Source: a virus
Virus record (IMG/VR): IMGVR_UViG_3300030106_002100
Span: 1 to 52,344 of that record
Strand: one strand, 5' to 3'
Length of the DNA: 52,344 nt
This document shows, piece after piece, positions 29,170 to 39,763 of the stretch (position 1 is the first letter of the stretch; each line of letters begins with the position of its first letter). The notes beneath the pieces are model-generated. The model saw only the letters and a program-made list of their open reading frames with translations. It ran no database searches and was not told the origin of the DNA. A program made the position numbers and the translations under genes.

Positions 29170-30090
29170 ATGGTACAACAAGTAACCCAAGTAACGAGTG
29201 AAATACCTGAGGTATTAGAACCTTATTTTGTAGGCGATCCCGATGCGGGTATAACAGGCATAATGCCAAAAGCCCAAGAACTATTTAGTAAAGGGTTCGA
29301 TGACGTATACGGGGCAGGAGCGCAATCTCTTATGGGGCTTGGTGGCGTGGCTCCAATGTCATTCTCACAGGAAGAACTTGGTAGGCAAATACAAAACCTA
29401 GCAGCACCAGACGCATTTACTATTGGTCAACAAGCTCAGGAAGAGGGCATAAGAGGGTTATTAGCAGCACCCGGAAGATTTGATTCAGCGGCAGCTCAAG
29501 CTTATATGTCACCGTATCAACAAGGTGTTGTAGATATAGCGCAAAGAAAAGCAATTGATGCTGCAAAAAAAGCTCAGTTAGATGCTAACTTAGCGTCAGC
29601 TAGACAAGGCACGTACGGTGGCGCAAGACAAGCTCTTTTAACAGGAGCTAGAGAATCAGGACTTAGGACACAACTTGGTGATATACAAACAAAAGGTTTA
29701 CAAGATGCGTTCTTAAATGCTCAACAACAGTTTGAGAGAGACCGTGCCGCACAAATGACAGCAGCTCAAGGACTAGGCACACTAGGACAACAACAAGGAG
29801 CATTAGGAGTTCAACAACAAGCAGCAGAACTAGACCGACTCAAAACACTCGGTGCGTTTGGAGACTTAGAAAGAGCTATAATGCAAGAAGGTCTAAGCGC
29901 AGAGGGCGCATTTCAAAGACGTAGAGACGAGTTTGGACAACAGCAACTAGGTAACCTTGCAAACATCTTGCGTGGTGTACCGACAACAAGCTCAACACAA
30001 ACAACTGCTACACCTCCACCAAGCTTTGCATCACAATTAACAGGTCTTGGTATTACAGGTCTAAGTTTAGCTAAATTATTAGGGGGTTAA
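29170..30090 (+). CDS. Helical internal virion protein, 306 aa
   Basis: Gln- and Ala-rich with long helices (RKAIDAAKKAQLDANLASAR; QQFERDRAAQMTAAQGLGTL) and a Thr-rich C-terminal linker ending in a small hydrophobic segment (ITGLSLAKLLGG). The location between the two other internal virion proteins and the helical, Gln-rich make-up fit an ejection protein that helps form the DNA-translocation channel. No enzyme motif. Confidence 0.65.
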   Translation: MVQQVTQVTSEIPEVLEPYFVGDPDAGITGIMPKAQELFSKGFDDVYGAGAQSLMGLGGVAPMSFSQEELGRQIQNLAAPDAFTIGQQAQEEGIRGLLAAPGRFDSAAAQAYMSPYQQGVVDIAQRKAIDAAKKAQLDANLASARQGTYGGARQALLTGARESGLRTQLGDIQTKGLQDAFLNAQQQFERDRAAQMTAAQGLGTLGQQQGALGVQQQAAELDRLKTLGAFGDLERAIMQEGLSAEGAFQRRRDEFGQQQLGNLANILRGVPTTSSTQTTATPPPSFASQLTGLGITGLSLAKLLGG

Positions 30091-31938: not shown

Positions 31939-34900
31939 ATGCCTATATACGAAGTAACTTCACCAACTGGTAAAAAATATAGGGTTGACGCACCAGAAGG
32001 AGCTACTCAAGAAGACGCTATTAGATACATAGCCGACGAAGTAGAGGCACCTCCAACAACCGAACCAGATTTAGCACAACCCACTGAGCCGATACCCGAT
32101 CCTGAAGATCAAAGCTTTCTTAGATCTGTTGCAGACGTTCCTCTTAGTTTTGGTCGAGGTGTGGTTTCCGGTATTAAGTTTATATCTGATGCGCTAGGTG
32201 CAGACAATGAATTTTCTCAAGCAGCAGAGGGCGTAGAAGAATACTTAGCCTCTCTTATGTCGGCACAGTCTAAACAAGATAGTGCAGAAATATCTAGAAT
32301 AATGAAAGATGCCGAGGATAAAGGTGTCGGTGATCAAGTTGTAGCTGCTCTAAAAGCTTTCACAGTTGCCCCCATAGATTTAGTCACGAACGCTCTTGGC
32401 ACTGCAGCTCCCGGTATTGTCGCTGCTGTTGGTTCTACAGTTGCAGGGGCACCTGCTGCTGCCACAGTCGGAGTTCTTGGAGCCGTCGGTACGACCCAAG
32501 GTTTAGGTATAGTAAAAGACACTATTTATGATGGAACAAAACAAGCATTATTAGATGCGGGTGCAACCGAACGACAAGCCGAAGAAAGAGCAAGATTAGC
32601 GCAAGAGTATGGTGGTCAGAATTTAGACTTAATATTGGGAGGTGGTGCTTTTGGTGGACTTGCTGCCATAACAGGTGTTGACAAAGCGTTGGCCGGACCC
32701 ATAGCTAAAAAAATATTAGGCGACTCCTTAATAAAATCTGGAAGTAAAGGAGGTTTAAAAGACTACGCATCGGCAATATTAAAAGAGGCAGGGCCGGAAG
32801 GTGCCCAAGCTGCTCAGGAACAACTTTCTGAGAATATAGCGTTACAAAGAGAGGGGTTCGATGTCCCAACATTTAGAGGGGTTGCAGGTGCTACAACACT
32901 TGAAGGAATAGTTGCAGGTGCGCTTGCTGCTGGTGTAGAGTTTGCAACACCGAAAGAAGATACTGAAGCTGATACTCTAGATGAAGAGTCACAGCGCACT
33001 CAACAAAGATTAGAGGAGGCACAGAAAAAAGATGATGCAGCCACAAAACCTGATGAACCTGACAGCAAAGGAGCTGAGTCTGGCGTTCCTAGTGCTGACG
33101 TCACAAAAACCGATGAAGGTGCCGAAGAAGTTGGAGAACCTGTCGGAAGAGGAGTGGGACCTGCTGGGGTTACTCCTGACAAGCCTGGAGATACAGAAAG
33201 ACGAGTCGACGATACAGTAGAAGAAGAAGGAGAGGTGTTTTTTAGAGGGCAATCGAAAAAAACTAAAAAGGGTACTGGCGCTGGAGCCATGGGTGAAGGC
33301 ATATATTTAACACCTAGTGAAACACAAGCTCAAGATTTTGCTGATCGACAAGAAGATGGTGAAGTAGTTAAGTACAAAGTTAAACCTAACTTAAAAATAG
33401 CCGACTACAAAGAAATGTTAAGAACAGATGAGGTTAATAAATTTAGGGAAAATTTTTTTAATGATCCAACAAATAGAAAGAGTCTAAGAGAATCTTATCC
33501 TCAATTAACTGATGAAGTATTTGGAAGGTTTTTAGGCACTTTACGGAGTCAGCCTGAAGTATTTCCAACTGAGCAACGAGGGTTTTCAAAGAAACAAATA
33601 GCTGACTATAACAAAGGTATAAAAGAAGTTATTCAAAAACTAGGATTCGATGGAGTTAATGACCCTTCACCTGAAATCGGGCTTGTCATATTTGATCCTA
33701 AAAATACAACAGAAGTAAAACCAGAAGTAACAGAAGAGGCAAAACCAGAACCAGAAGTAAAAACAGAACCAGAAGTAAAAACAGAACCAGAAGTAAAAAC
33801 AGAACCAGAAGTAAAACCAGAACCAGAAGTAAAACCAGAACCAGAAGTAACAACCATACCAAAATCAGATTTAGTAAAACAAGAAAAGAAACTAACAAAA
33901 GAGTTCGATAGTATAAAGCCAGGTAAAGGTAGGCGAAAAGCAAGTGCTGGAGATACAGGTTTCTTAGGTCTTAAAGAAATAGAAGACATGTTTGCTAATA
34001 TGCGAGGTTATAAGGTATCTCCAGAAGAAGAGCAAAAAATAAGAGATAAATTTAAAGGGACGTCTGTATTACCCAGAGATATAGAAAACTCTATACAAAA
34101 TAGAAACAATCTGTCTTATGAAAAAAGAAAAGAAAAAGCTTTACGTCTAGGAAATATTGCGAAAGCTAGATTAGAAATTCTTAAAGAAGCAAAAGGTAAA
34201 GACCTTAATTCTGAGGGCAGACAAAACGTAATTGATGCAGTCATAAAACGCATATTTAATGATGATAAAAACTTAAAAGAAGCTAGCGTTAAAAAATACG
34301 GTAAAGGTAGAGAGTTTGTTTTAGCTGAAGAACTTGTAAGCGAACGCTCTGTTGTTGATTTAGGTAAGGCAGTATTACTTCAAGATAGCGCAAGTATAGA
34401 TGAATTAAGCTCCAGTGATACGGTAGATATAAAAAGAATAGAAAAAGCTGCCGAGCTTGCAGAGTTGCAAGAAAAAATGTTTGAGTATGTAGAGCAATCA
34501 GAAACACCTGAAGGAAAACAACCAACAGCGCCGACAGCAGAGGTAAAAGAAGATGCTACAAAAGATCCTGAAACTATAAAACAAGCTAAGACGATAGCTG
34601 AAAATACAAAGGACTTAAAAGAAGAAGATAGCTTTGAAGATTTATCTATAGAAAATTCTCAAACACCCAACGCTGATCAAACGACACCCAACAATGTCGG
34701 TAACATAAACCAAAACGCTAGGCCTAAATGGAAGCAGGTAATAGGTAAGTACACTCCAAAAGCTTTAATGCAAATGGCAGGTGCAGCAAGAGCAAAACTG
34801 TTTAGAATATACACCCTTCGTATGTTAAACGATACGAACAACTTGCTTGGCGGTTCTAAAATGGTTCAGTATCTACAAGCTTTAAAAATAAGTGAGGCTA

Positions 34901-37900
34901 ATGTTGCAGATAGGAACTCAATAATAAATGAAGCTGCCGTAATAATGCGTGACATTCAAAACTTCCGAAAAGAAAAAACAAAAGGTAGAGACAACAACAA
35001 TATATTAAAAGATTTAGGAATCATAATGAACTCTGCAACTATGAGGCAAAAAGATCCTATGTCTTTACCTAAGGATGATGAATTAAGAAAAGCGTATGAA
35101 AAGCTACCCCCTAAAGCTAAAAACATATACAAAGCTTTACAGGCATTTTATCAGAAACAAACGGATGGGTTTGTCTTTGACCTTGTAGAAAAATATCAAA
35201 GAACTATGGTTACTGTAAACCACGACGATGATCCAGAATATACACAAAAAAGACGTATAAAAATAGCAGAAGCATTAATACAATTTGGATCTGAAGAACA
35301 AATAAAGAAGACCTACTTTGATAAAACAAATGAAGAAACTGTAAACTATGTAGATGAGTACATAAAAATAAAAGAAAACGATTTACAAAAAGAAAAAGAT
35401 TTTAGGGAAAAGAACTTAAATGCTATGTCAGCGCAAAGAGCAGCAGATACTTTAGCTGATATAAGAGACCTTGAAAAAAATATTATTAAGTTAAAAAGCA
35501 AAAAGTCTAGGAGAATAGCTCCGTATTTCCCATTAAAAAGATTTGGAGAGTATTGGTTTCAAGTTAAACGAGCAGGTAAAAAACAACCTGTTGAATTTTA
35601 TACTTTTGAATCTGCTGCAGATAGAGATGCGGCATTAGAGACTAGATTAAAAGAGTTACAAGAAGCGGGAGACCCTAATTTAAGTATAGACGCTAAATTT
35701 ACAGCCGATGGTTTAGAGGGTAATGATGTAGGAAATAGATTACTAAAAGCTTTAAACTCTTTCGATGTTTCTTCGTCTGTTGGAAACAATATAAAAGATA
35801 TAGTGGATGGCATAATTCAAAATAGAAAAAAAGAATTTGAAAACTCTAATTTAACAGAAGAACAAATAGCAGATATTCAAGACGAAAGAGATAAACAGAC
35901 CCGTACTTCAGACGATGGCAGACCCATAAAAGGTGTGAGTTTAAATAAACTACAAAACGATATAGAAGATGCTGTAACTCAATTGGTATTTATGACTCTC
36001 CCTGAAAATAACATAAGAAAAGCTTTTTTAGAAAGAAGAAACATAGTTGGAGCTGGCACAGATATAGCTAGAATATTTTCAGGACAAGCGATTAGTTTTG
36101 CGTATCAGAGATCAAGATTAAAATACACCGACTCTTTCTTTACACAAATAGACAATGCGTATATAGCAGCAAAACAAGACAGAAATGTAGACAGATCTAC
36201 GTTAAAAATAGACTTAGTCAGAGAGCTTGATGCTAGAGCAACACACATATTAGGTATAAAACCAACCACAACAGCAGATAACATATCTAACGGACTAACT
36301 CAGTTTACTTTCTTGTGGTTACTAACTGCTCCTGCCTCTGGTTTAATAAACATTGCAGGTATGGCAGCAATAGGTATGCCCTATATAGGAGCTAGATTCG
36401 GCTTCGGTAAAACCAATAAACTTATGATGCAGTATTCTACAAAATACTTAACGTCTAGATGGTTCTCGTCCAGTAAACAAGCTAAAGATGCACAAGGTAA
36501 TACAGTAAATGTACAGTATTCTACTACTGCGCCAACGCTAGAGAAAAAGATAGATGAATTAGACGTAGATCCTAAACTGCAACCTGTACTAAAAACTGCG
36601 TATAAAAGATTTATGCACGACAACGATGTTAACGCATCCCTAACACATGACTTTACAGGTGCTGGAAGAGAACAAGATGTGCCGGGTGTTGCAAGAGGTA
36701 TTGTGGGCGGTTACAGAACTTCAGTTGACTTTATTTCTGCTTTCTTTCATCACACTGAGAGGTTCCAAAGAGAGATAATGTTAATGACTTCGTTTCAATT
36801 AGCATACGAAAAGAACGTAAAAGATGGTAAGAAAGATGCTTTTGAAGATGCCATACAACAGGCGAAAGATCTAACAGGTATGTCTATAGGTGATTTTACA
36901 AGTGCTGGAAAACCTCCTGTTTTGGCTCAACCTTTTATTAAAAACATCTTCCAATTCAAGCAATACTCTTTGATTCAAACATACAACATGATACGTAATG
37001 CTTACGTTATGACAGCATTTAAGGATGGAGATGATCCGCAACTCAAAGCTGAAAAAGCAGAGGCAAGAAAAAGGCTAGTTGGTATGTTAGGTATAACATT
37101 TTTAATGGCTGGTGCAGCGGGCTTACCTATATACACGTTTAGTATGCTTGCAATAGAAGCATTTTCTGCTGCGTTTGATGATGAAGAAGACAGAATAGAA
37201 GACGGAGAAGCTTATGTAAATGGTTTATTGTCTCAAACAATAGGCGGTAAAGGAGCGGCTATGTTGTTAAGAGGTGCTCCGGGAGAGTTAGCAAATATAG
37301 GTATATCAGAGAGGGTTAGTTTAGATTTAGCAAATTTATGGATGCGAGATAGCGGTCTTCAACTTAACTATGAAGATGCTTACAAGGCTACACTAATAAA
37401 TCTATTAGGTCCTACCGTATCAATAGGAGCTAACTTTGCTAAAGCTGCAAACTTATACATGAATGAATACAATCCAAGAGCCGCATTTGAAGCTGCCGCA
37501 CCTATACTTGCAGCAAACATTTCAAAAGCAGAACGTTACCTAGCAGATAAAGCTGCAGTATCTCTCACAAAAGGAACTGAAATACAAGGTGATTTAGACG
37601 CTGTAGATGTATTGTACAGAGCACTTGGTTTTGCACCAGAGAATGTATTACGTAAGCAAAAGTCTGCAATAAGAATGAAAGCAGGTGAGCTTAAAATTAC
37701 AGGCTTAAGAACTCGTCTTTTAGGCGCATTGTTTTTAGCTACTCACTTTGATGACGATAATATGTATGACGACATAAAAGAAAAAATAGATAGGTTTAAC
37801 GATAAATACCCAGAGTTTCGTATAAGCGGTAGAGACATAAGAAACTCTTTGAGTAGAAGAATGGATGCTTTGAGAGAAAGAGAACGAAACAACGGTGTAA

Positions 37901-39051
37901 ATATAAATAGAAAACTTAGACGTAGATTGGAAGAAGATTACCCTGCTTTTTACACAGATGAAGAAGACTATAAAAAGGGCGGCTTAGTTAAGAGATTCCA
38001 AAAAGGAGGTGTATCAGAAATAGATAGAGATAAACTAATAAAACTTATGAAAGAGGGTAGTTACGATCCCACCATAGCTAACCCTAATTTGGGGTTTAAG
38101 TATGACCCTAAAGGTAGTCCTCTTGGTTATGTTAAACAAGATCACTTAGTCCCCTATCGAACAGACGAAGAGTATGAAAAGGCCATACAAGAAAAGTTAA
38201 CAAAAAATAGTGGGGAGAGAGTTAGTAGATTGCCATTAAAAAAAGCACAAGATATGTATTTAACAGATAAATTTTTAGACCAAGATAGAGAAACGCAAAA
38301 ATTTATTTTACAGCATGAGAAAGAACATATAGAGGGTCAAAAAGCTAAACCCTACTTTACTCAAATAACAGAGAAAGAAAAAGAACTTCCAGCAGATCAA
38401 TTTAAAGAACTAATTATTCAAAAACAGAAAGCGAGTAGCCAACCAAGAACTTATGCTGCTATAGGCACTTATGAAGATGTTTTTGGTGTATCGGAAGAAG
38501 ATGCCATCAGTAGAATTAACAGCTTTACAAGGAATATTTTTGAAAAAAATGGTGTTGGGTTTAAAAGCACATTAAAAAAACTTGAGGGGGTAGACCCTTT
38601 ATTTGATAAATTACGGCAAGAGGCGGGAGACAAAACACATGAGTATCTCCCTGGAAAAGTATCTGAAGTTTCTGAACATATAGGTGAAGGAGTTTTACAA
38701 AAGTATATATCAGAAAAATATGAGGTCCCTATAAAGGCTGTAGGTTATATTGGTGCTTCAGACACTAAAAGGTATGGCGCTTCTTTTGAAGAAGGGGTAT
38801 CTGATTTATCTGCTATTGAAACTGTAAAAAATGTAGACCTAACAACAGACCCTATTTTAAGAGAACTTATATTTGATAGCGATCCTGAGTTAATCCAAGT
38901 ATATAAAGCAGTAACTGGTTTAAGAACTGATAGACTAGATCCTAGAGATTTACCTCCATTTACTGCACAAAATATAAAAGGTTCAAAAGAAGAGGAAGAA
39001 GGTTTGCGGCTTAGAAAAGAAATAAGAGAAGATATGAAGAAAAAGAAATGA
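31939..39051 (+). CDS. Giant polyvalent virion protein with PLxRFG, ART-like and zincin-like domains, 2370 aa
   Basis: The N-terminus IYEVTSPTGKKYRVDAPEGA starts a known phage virion module; a Gly/Ala hydrophobic stretch follows (about 143-190). Residues about 432-592 resemble an ADP-ribosyltransferase fold (VFFRGQ, GEGIYLTPSETQAQDFAD, LVIFDPKN). After tandem EVKTEP repeats comes a long helical region with APYFPLKRFGEYW (PLxRFG at 1198-1203), the marker of PLxRFG polyvalent proteins. Two candidate membrane segments lie near 1453-1490 and 1712-1746. At the C-terminus, after KKGGLVKRFQKGGV, HEKEH (2126-2130) is a zinc-peptidase HExxH motif. Probably injected with the DNA to act in the host. The ART and zincin domains are assigned by motif only. 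Confidence 0.8.
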   Translation: MPIYEVTSPTGKKYRVDAPEGATQEDAIRYIADEVEAPPTTEPDLAQPTEPIPDPEDQSFLRSVADVPLSFGRGVVSGIKFISDALGADNEFSQAAEGVEEYLASLMSAQSKQDSAEISRIMKDAEDKGVGDQVVAALKAFTVAPIDLVTNALGTAAPGIVAAVGSTVAGAPAAATVGVLGAVGTTQGLGIVKDTIYDGTKQALLDAGATERQAEERARLAQEYGGQNLDLILGGGAFGGLAAITGVDKALAGPIAKKILGDSLIKSGSKGGLKDYASAILKEAGPEGAQAAQEQLSENIALQREGFDVPTFRGVAGATTLEGIVAGALAAGVEFATPKEDTEADTLDEESQRTQQRLEEAQKKDDAATKPDEPDSKGAESGVPSADVTKTDEGAEEVGEPVGRGVGPAGVTPDKPGDTERRVDDTVEEEGEVFFRGQSKKTKKGTGAGAMGEGIYLTPSETQAQDFADRQEDGEVVKYKVKPNLKIADYKEMLRTDEVNKFRENFFNDPTNRKSLRESYPQLTDEVFGRFLGTLRSQPEVFPTEQRGFSKKQIADYNKGIKEVIQKLGFDGVNDPSPEIGLVIFDPKNTTEVKPEVTEEAKPEPEVKTEPEVKTEPEVKTEPEVKPEPEVKPEPEVTTIPKSDLVKQEKKLTKEFDSIKPGKGRRKASAGDTGFLGLKEIEDMFANMRGYKVSPEEEQKIRDKFKGTSVLPRDIENSIQNRNNLSYEKRKEKALRLGNIAKARLEILKEAKGKDLNSEGRQNVIDAVIKRIFNDDKNLKEASVKKYGKGREFVLAEELVSERSVVDLGKAVLLQDSASIDELSSSDTVDIKRIEKAAELAELQEKMFEYVEQSETPEGKQPTAPTAEVKEDATKDPETIKQAKTIAENTKDLKEEDSFEDLSIENSQTPNADQTTPNNVGNINQNARPKWKQVIGKYTPKALMQMAGAARAKLFRIYTLRMLNDTNNLLGGSKMVQYLQALKISEANVADRNSIINEAAVIMRDIQNFRKEKTKGRDNNNILKDLGIIMNSATMRQKDPMSLPKDDELRKAYEKLPPKAKNIYKALQAFYQKQTDGFVFDLVEKYQRTMVTVNHDDDPEYTQKRRIKIAEALIQFGSEEQIKKTYFDKTNEETVNYVDEYIKIKENDLQKEKDFREKNLNAMSAQRAADTLADIRDLEKNIIKLKSKKSRRIAPYFPLKRFGEYWFQVKRAGKKQPVEFYTFESAADRDAALETRLKELQEAGDPNLSIDAKFTADGLEGNDVGNRLLKALNSFDVSSSVGNNIKDIVDGIIQNRKKEFENSNLTEEQIADIQDERDKQTRTSDDGRPIKGVSLNKLQNDIEDAVTQLVFMTLPENNIRKAFLERRNIVGAGTDIARIFSGQAISFAYQRSRLKYTDSFFTQIDNAYIAAKQDRNVDRSTLKIDLVRELDARATHILGIKPTTTADNISNGLTQFTFLWLLTAPASGLINIAGMAAIGMPYIGARFGFGKTNKLMMQYSTKYLTSRWFSSSKQAKDAQGNTVNVQYSTTAPTLEKKIDELDVDPKLQPVLKTAYKRFMHDNDVNASLTHDFTGAGREQDVPGVARGIVGGYRTSVDFISAFFHHTERFQREIMLMTSFQLAYEKNVKDGKKDAFEDAIQQAKDLTGMSIGDFTSAGKPPVLAQPFIKNIFQFKQYSLIQTYNMIRNAYVMTAFKDGDDPQLKAEKAEARKRLVGMLGITFLMAGAAGLPIYTFSMLAIEAFSAAFDDEEDRIEDGEAYVNGLLSQTIGGKGAAMLLRGAPGELANIGISERVSLDLANLWMRDSGLQLNYEDAYKATLINLLGPTVSIGANFAKAANLYMNEYNPRAAFEAAAPILAANISKAERYLADKAAVSLTKGTEIQGDLDAVDVLYRALGFAPENVLRKQKSAIRMKAGELKITGLRTRLLGALFLATHFDDDNMYDDIKEKIDRFNDKYPEFRISGRDIRNSLSRRMDALRERERNNGVNINRKLRRRLEEDYPAFYTDEEDYKKGGLVKRFQKGGVSEIDRDKLIKLMKEGSYDPTIANPNLGFKYDPKGSPLGYVKQDHLVPYRTDEEYEKAIQEKLTKNSGERVSRLPLKKAQDMYLTDKFLDQDRETQKFILQHEKEHIEGQKAKPYFTQITEKEKELPADQFKELIIQKQKASSQPRTYAAIGTYEDVFGVSEEDAISRINSFTRNIFEKNGVGFKSTLKKLEGVDPLFDKLRQEAGDKTHEYLPGKVSEVSEHIGEGVLQKYISEKYEVPIKAVGYIGASDTKRYGASFEEGVSDLSAIETVKNVDLTTDPILRELIFDSDPELIQVYKAVTGLRTDRLDPRDLPPFTAQNIKGSKEEEEGLRLRKEIREDMKKKK
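33751..33855 (+). repeat. 18-bp tandem repeat array (five full copies plus a partial)
   Basis: Units of CCAGAAGTAAAAACAGAA and close variants follow in frame, encoding (P-E-V-K-T/P-E)n. It forms the flexible linker after the ART-like segment. Copy number probably varies between relatives by slippage. Confidence 0.9.
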
Positions 39052-39422
39052 ATAAATACCCTATAGTATCCGGTATGAAAGAAAAAACTAGACCGCCTTT
39101 GGTTCTAGTTACTTGGCGTGATGCAGAACATGAATTTGGGTGGAAAGACGGCAATACACATATAGAGCCTATAGCTCTTCCGCTAGTTTATAGCATTGGT
39201 TGGTTTATATATTCTAACGAACACGGTGTCAAGATATGTCAAACCTGGACGGTGGATAATCATGCACAAACACTTGTGATCCCAAAGAATATGATTGAGA
39301 AGGTAGAAGAGATATGGCCCGAAAAAGAGATAGTAAAGGGCAGTACCAAAAGCATGGCAAAACCCACTATGAAAAAAACAAAAAAGCCTACGTCGAGAAA
39401 GCCAAGAAGCACAAAGCGATAG
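39048..39422 (+). CDS. Hypothetical protein, 124 aa, coupled to the giant virion gene
   Basis: Starts ATGA overlapping the giant gene. PPLVLVTWRDAEHEFGWKDG and a globular alpha/beta domain are followed by a Lys/Thr-rich basic tail (MAKPTMKKTKKPTSRKPRST). The fold and function are not recognised. It overlaps the HNH gene by 109 bases in another frame. Confidence 0.65.
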   Translation: MNKYPIVSGMKEKTRPPLVLVTWRDAEHEFGWKDGNTHIEPIALPLVYSIGWFIYSNEHGVKICQTWTVDNHAQTLVIPKNMIEKVEEIWPEKEIVKGSTKSMAKPTMKKTKKPTSRKPRSTKR

Positions 39423-39763
39423 AAAAACAAAAGTGGGCAGCGTTCAAAGCTACCTTGTCATGTACTCAGTGTGGAGAAAACCACCCTGCAGCCTTAGATT
39501 TTCACCATATAAAGAGAAGTAGAGACAACATAAAAGTCCACGTCTTAGTGAAAGACGGTCGGTTCAAGAGAGCCTATGAAGAAATAAAAAAGTGTATAGT
39601 GTTGTGTTCTAATTGTCACAGAAAACTTCACCATGAAGAGTACAAAAAAAACCCCCGCACTGGGCGGGGGCAAACTAAGGAAACATGTCAAGATGATTAT
39701 ATCACTCAATCCTCCAAAAGCGCAAGCCCCTCAGCTTGTCTTCTATTACGGACTTACAAATAA
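39314..39763 (+). CDS. HNH endonuclease-like protein, 149 aa
   Basis: The core SCTQCGENHPAALDFHHIKR and KKCIVLCSNCHRKLHHEE forms the beta-beta-alpha metal fold of HNH nucleases, with zinc Cys pairs CxxC and CxxC and catalytic HH. A basic helical leader (YEKNKKAYVEKAKKHK) could bind DNA. It may be a free-standing nuclease or a homing-type element. Its 3' end runs through the minus-strand terminator and 62 bases into the opposing gene; the C-terminal 35 residues look unlike a normal protein end. Confidence 0.75.
   Translation: MARKRDSKGQYQKHGKTHYEKNKKAYVEKAKKHKAIEKQKWAAFKATLSCTQCGENHPAALDFHHIKRSRDNIKVHVLVKDGRFKRAYEEIKKCIVLCSNCHRKLHHEEYKKNPRTGRGQTKETCQDDYITQSSKSASPSACLLLRTYK
39644..39670 (-). 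terminator. Intrinsic terminator for the leftward replication operon
   Basis: On the minus strand a GC-rich stem, CCCCCGC with GCGGGGG (loop of five), is followed by eight T. It lies 31 bases after the stop of the last leftward gene and inside the 3' part of the rightward HNH gene. Confidence 0.9.

What the first reader, a model, noticed from the sequence alone, without database searches (positions are those of the whole stretch)
33232..33714. ADP-ribosyltransferase-like segment in the ejected protein
Residues about 432-592 read VFFRGQ, then GEGIYLTPSETQAQDFAD, later FDGVND and LVIFDPKN. The order 'F-x-R/H-G', 'G-x-Y-L-T/S...A..FA', '...V-I-F-D-P' follows the toxin-like ART pattern. If active, the phage would modify a host target at infection start. 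The NAD-binding Arg/His and Glu have not been confirmed.
Basis: inference. Interest (0 to 1): 0.7.

Follow-up and report, generated by a model that had tools for sequence, protein, structure and literature searches.

The report
Injected phage ADP-ribosyltransferase domain, Arg-type
A giant phage protein, probably injected into the bacterium with the phage DNA, carries a small enzyme-like domain of the ADP-ribosyltransferase kind; its only close relatives found are small stand-alone proteins of other (T4-like) phages, and the whole group has an arginine where the known polyvalent-protein family has a histidine.

Summary
Residues 433-592 of the 2370-aa ORF 31939-39051 contain VFFRG, GEGIYLT...A..FA, GFDGV and LVIFDP in order, far above shuffled controls. 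The domain is an ADP-ribosyltransferase (ART) superfamily domain, related to but outside Pfam ART-PolyVal: it scores 18.8 bits against a cut-off of 31.2, has Arg (R436) where 109 of 114 canonical members have His, and lacks their WFG head and KSA-GN-G tail. A DNA-pattern search found its true relatives: six stand-alone proteins of about 150 aa (one cut short) in phage contigs, one lying between tail-sheath-stabiliser and terminase genes as in T4-like phages. A profile built from five of them finds the window at E=9.5e-23. R436, Y456 and D586 are invariant; D571 is kept in five of six. The stand-alone proteins start with a T4-type capsid-targeting-like leader. The host protein has a DarB/PLxRFG C-terminus and an N-terminal domain shared with many phages, with varied payloads between. 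Most likely: an effector ejected with DNA that uses NAD+ to modify a host macromolecule. There is no conserved catalytic Glu; the acidic residue is Asp. New variant of a known kind.

The parts
31939..39051 (+). 2370-aa giant polyvalent-type protein that holds the domain
   Evidence: Single open frame; PHROG DarB-like antirestriction E=5.7e-52 at residues 851-2002; weak LPD39 at 982-1104
32077..32988 (+). Conserved N-terminal domain (residues 47-350)
   Evidence: 41-49% identity to L022, L045, L043, L047; 311 relatives confirmed in viral contigs, 80 kept
33235..33714 (+). ART-like domain (residues 433-592)
   Evidence: Held-out profiles and shuffles; hhalign to stand-alone relatives 99.5%, E=1.5e-22; relatives to canonical ART-PolyVal E=2.6e-8 to 3e-12
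33244..33246 (+). R436, strand-1 position (FFRG)
   Evidence: Invariant in window and 5 aligned stand-alone relatives; His in 109 of 114 canonical domains
33304..33306 (+). Y456, strand-2 position (GIYLT)
   Evidence: Invariant in subfamily; Y56/F33/W17 of 114 in canonical family
33649..33651 (+). D571 (GFDG), the position that is Asp in 113 canonical domains
   Evidence: five of six in subfamily, His in L316
33694..33696 (+). D586 (IFDP)
   Evidence: Invariant in subfamily, variable in canonical family
33741..33854 (+). Glu-Pro-Glu-Val-Lys repeat linker directly after the domain
   Evidence: 18-base tandem repeat, 6.3 copies, 95% matches
35080..37947 (+). Conserved C-terminal DarB/PLxRFG region (residues 1048-2003)
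   Evidence: tblastn to Parlo, ZX1, LASTA and others, 24-27% identity; L002 49-54%
29170..30090 (+). DNA ejection protein, two genes upstream
   Evidence: phrog_4287 E=1.8e-14

Best explanation
The segment is a complete ART-superfamily domain of an undescribed R-Y-D subfamily, carried as one exchangeable payload of a giant ejection-type protein. Inferred mechanism: the protein is packed in the head, enters the cell with the DNA, and the domain, held between flexible linkers, binds NAD+ with R436 and Y456, uses D571 or D586 as the acidic residue, and transfers ADP-ribose to a host macromolecule early in infection, as T4 Alt does. Shown: homology to ARTs, conservation of R, Y and Asp, modular setting. 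Inferred: packaging, injection, catalysis. Target unknown.
For: Held-out profiles; hhalign 99.5% to five stand-alone relatives and E=3e-12 from that group to 114 canonical ARTs, controls no better than 0.003. R, Y and the FD aspartate are invariant across the window and five stand-alone proteins only 41-59% identical to the reference L344, which argues for selection on a site. Phages sharing the N-terminal domain carry canonical ART-PolyVal in the same giant ORF: six of 80 above cut-off and one cut by a contig end. All six stand-alone relatives start with a leader ending in x-E-A, like T4 internal proteins, which enter the head by such leaders (PMC3012670, PMC5694885). In L270 the gene sits between a tail-sheath stabiliser and, after one small gene, terminase. 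Gene order and DarB-like C-terminus suit a virion protein.
Against: No structure could be predicted and no solved structure matched by sequence. Pfam score is below the gathering cut-off. The profile-profile alignments to canonical ARTs do not cover strand 1, so the R-for-H equivalence rests on the multiple alignment. L316 has His instead of D571. No proteomics shows the giant protein in virions.
Confidence: 0.66

Rival explanations
1. Pseudo-enzyme: an ART fold that has lost catalysis (His to Arg) and serves as a binding or structural module.
For: The defining His is Arg, the segment is strongly diverged, and no close copy was found by sequence in phages, plasmids or prokaryote genomes.
Against: Arg is invariant in an independent set of stand-alone proteins together with Tyr and Asp; decay would not keep it. 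Arg is the normal strand-1 residue in the R-S-E clade of ARTs (PMC5512222, PMC7955679).
Confidence: 0.2
2. NADase or small-molecule/nucleic-acid ART rather than a protein modifier.
For: The ART superfamily includes NADases and DNA-modifying members (PMC9503650). In L303 and L344 the stand-alone gene lies next to a cytidylyltransferase-like gene, compatible with nucleotide metabolism.
Against: Nearest characterised comparison, ARTs of polyvalent proteins, is predicted to modify proteins (PMC5512222). No direct evidence either way.
Confidence: 0.25
3. Chance resemblance of short motifs in a linker region.
For: Pfam score alone is sub-threshold and whole-protein E-value is 4.5.
Against: Held-out profile E=9.5e-23 and 2000 shuffles; 45% identity over 119 aligned columns to the stand-alone family.
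Confidence: 0.02

Closest known systems
ART-PolyVal (PF18760), the Tox-ART-HYD2-type ART of polyvalent proteins (Iyer et al. 2017, PMC5512222)
   Same: Order of motifs, strand-2 Tyr, GyDG Asp, setting in a giant ejected-type protein; profile similarity E=3e-12
   Different: Arg instead of His in strand 1; no WFGdSKVVD head and no KSA-GN-G tail; below gathering score
T4 Alt (Alt/VIP2 ARTs, R-S-E clade)
   Same: Strand-1 Arg; proposed delivery from the head at infection start (PMC5512222)
   Different: Second motif is Y-L-T, not S-T-S type, and no conserved Glu
P1 DarB and DarB-like/PLxRFG phage proteins
   Same: C-terminal half related, phrog_10089 E=5.7e-52; head-associated proteins
   Different: No methyltransferase or helicase domain found here, whereas Parlo has both kinds of match
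Stand-alone phage proteins in L270, L303, L316, L324, L340, L344
   Same: Full-length homology including R, Y, FD; 36-65 bits by phmmer, profile E=9.5e-23
   Different: About 150 aa, leader at N-terminus, no fusion; window has a longer insert between Y and D motifs

Membership tests
ART-PolyVal PF18760 / Tox-ART-HYD2 | Score above curated cut-off (31.2 bits) | tested here: not met
   18.8 bits on the segment
ART-PolyVal PF18760 / Tox-ART-HYD2 | His in strand 1 | tested here: not met
   R436; canonical 109 of 114 His
ART-PolyVal PF18760 / Tox-ART-HYD2 | Tyr in strand 2 | tested here: met
   Y456
ART-PolyVal PF18760 / Tox-ART-HYD2 | Asp in strand 5 | tested here: met
   D571 aligns with the near-invariant GyDG Asp; that this is the published strand-5 Asp is my inference
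ART-PolyVal PF18760 / Tox-ART-HYD2 | WFG head and KSA-GN-G tail seen in the canonical set | tested here: not met
   Absent in window and in stand-alone relatives
ART superfamily | Split beta-sheet NAD cleft fold | not testable with these tools
ART superfamily | Profile similarity to established ART families | tested here: met
   hhalign E=3e-12 against 114 ART-PolyVal domains, controls at best 0.003
R-S-E clade (T4 Alt) | Strand-1 Arg | tested here: met
   R436
R-S-E clade (T4 Alt) | Ser-containing strand-2 motif and conserved strand-5 Glu | tested here: not met
   GIYLT invariant; E579 not conserved
DarB | DNA methyltransferase-helicase dyad | tested here: not met
   No such Pfam match in the full protein up to E=10
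Polyvalent protein | Large multi-domain phage protein in a virion/ejection gene cluster with varied effector domains | tested here: met

The most novel reading that the evidence does not exclude
A distinct R-Y-D group of ARTs, mixing the strand-1 Arg of one great clade with the Tyr and Asp of another, circulates among phages in two delivery formats: a small head-targeted protein in T4-like phages and a payload domain inside giant ejection proteins of a DarB-type phage. It would be a shared pool of injected effectors swapped between virion architectures.
Probability: 0.5. Interest if true: 0.6.

Novelty: new variant of a known kind. Interest (0 to 1): 0.48.

Why it matters
ARTs in polyvalent proteins are predicted but, to my knowledge, mostly untested. 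This case offers a compact 150-aa stand-alone version of the same domain that can be purified and assayed, makes the role of the strand-1 residue testable, and links head-packaged internal proteins with giant ejection proteins as alternative vehicles for the same effector.

Tried and rejected
Single-sequence searches with the segment found nothing in phages, plasmids, viral contigs or prokaryote genomes. PDB searches gave only weak unrelated matches such as ribosomal eL22 and GT6. An alignment of the window with canonical and W-type domains had no stretch conserved enough to scan with. My first DNA pattern had a frame error in its spacing and found nothing; the corrected one, checked on the window first, found the stand-alone family. 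The F-R-G motif recalls the FRG and RES domains, but Pfam gave no match to either, so I dropped that. Pfam's PARP hit after the domain is a low-complexity repeat match (procyclic acidic repetitive protein), unrelated to poly-ADP-ribose polymerase. Arg/Trp-type segments in L172, L148, L264, L266 and L155 look ART-like but have no Pfam support where tested; kept as a lead only.

Full report
Check of the observation. The ORF 31939-39051 is open over 2370 codons. Pfam gives ART-PolyVal E=0.003 (18.8 bits, cut-off 31.2) and DUF3990 E=0.024 on the segment alone; on the whole protein the ART match drops to E=4.5. The signal is real: a profile of seven canonical domains that excludes the window scores the segment 26.1 bits, the best of 2000 shuffles 8.9, and the window ORF is the only non-member above threshold among 15,528 ORFs.

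The protein around it. Residues 851-2002 match the DarB-like family phrog_10089 at E=5.7e-52, and 1048-2003 align at 24-27% identity with PLxRFG/DarB-like proteins of Parlo, ZX1, LASTA and others. Residues 47-350 form a second conserved block, 41-49% identical to L022, L045, L043 and L047, with 311 confirmed relatives in viral contigs. Between the blocks relatives differ: a GHKL ATPase in L022, canonical ART-PolyVal in six of 80 relatives above the cut-off and one cut by a contig end. In more distant DarB-like phages there are a transglycosylase, helicase and methyltransferase (Parlo) or a pyrophosphatase (douglas 12A4). The window lacks methyltransferase and helicase matches. Two genes upstream is a DNA ejection protein, and terminase, portal and major head genes lie in the same strand run. 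So the domain is one payload of a polyvalent-type protein, in the sense of Iyer et al. 2017 (PMC5512222).

Canonical family for comparison. 564 relatives of the canonical set were confirmed in viral contigs, 80 kept. Among 114 domains His is present at strand 1 in 109; strand 2 is Y56/F33/W17; the GyDG Asp is present in 113; a WFG head and a KSA-GN-G tail are near-universal. The window has Arg, Tyr and Asp and neither head nor tail. It is therefore not filed as a member.

True relatives. Six encode small proteins matching the window (phmmer 2.9e-20 to 1.8e-11; L340 is cut by a contig end). Five aligned with the window share F-x-RG, G-x-GIYLT, the FD aspartate and other positions; GyDG Asp is kept except in L316. 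A profile of these five finds the window at E=9.5e-23; hhalign gives 99.5% and 45% identity. The same group matches 114 canonical ARTs at E=3e-12, with 30 column-shuffled controls no better than 0.003. These alignments to canonical ARTs begin after strand 1, so the R-for-H equivalence rests on the multiple alignment. The stand-alone proteins score below the Pfam cut-off too where tested (five of them), have no tblastn match in reference phages where tested (L324, L344), and no confirmed relative in the collection of 84,980 prokaryote species genomes.

Delivery clue. All six stand-alone proteins begin with a leader ending in Glu-Ala about ten residues in (MKNFKSYITE-A, MKTFKQHLKE-A and similar; L316 by a GTG start). 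T4 internal proteins enter the head by 10-20-residue N-terminal leaders cut after Glu (PMC3012670, PMC5694885). A regular expression drawn from these sequences, so not independent of them, matched only two other ORFs of 10,464: a cytidylyltransferase-like neighbour in L303 and another ART-like protein in L360. In L270 the gene follows a tail-sheath stabiliser and precedes, after one small gene, the terminase. This suggests, without proving, that the same domain is head-packaged on its own in T4-like phages.

Mechanism and limits. I infer NAD+ binding by R436 and Y456 and an acidic role for D571 or D586. In published classification ARTs fall into H-H-h, H-Y-[EDQ] and R-S-E clades (PMC9503650, PMC7955679); an R-Y-D set does not fit any of them neatly.

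Verdict. The kind, an ART inside an injected polyvalent protein, is known. New here are the Arg-type subfamily and its occurrence both as a head-leader protein and as a fused payload.

Noticed in passing
window 38314-38328 (residues 2126-2130): HEKEH zincin-type metal-binding motif in the extra C-terminal region (about residues 2010-2370), which has no match in the fetched relatives or Pfam; a possible second effector.
   Followed up: partly
window 39314-39763: Small ORF with CxxC...HHI...CxxCH pattern typical of HNH endonucleases, overlapping the preceding ORF 39048-39422.
   Followed up: no
L022:4850-9190: GHKL ATPase (HATPase_c_3 E=1.5e-9) as payload in the same variable stretch of a relative's giant protein.
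   Followed up: partly
L172:2275-2814, L148:6514-7068, L264, L266, L155:9426-9845: Other ART-like segments with strand-1 Arg and Trp in place of Tyr, in giant proteins with the same N-terminal domain (L172, L148, L155); no Pfam match for the three tested.
   Followed up: partly
L296, L360, L364: Stand-alone His-type ART-like proteins in phage contigs also begin with Glu-ending leaders resembling capsid-targeting sequences.
   Followed up: no
L303:3732-4772, L344:5153-7192: Cytidylyltransferase-like gene directly after the stand-alone ART gene; in L303 it has the same kind of leader plus an AAA/zeta-toxin-like kinase domain.
   Followed up: partly
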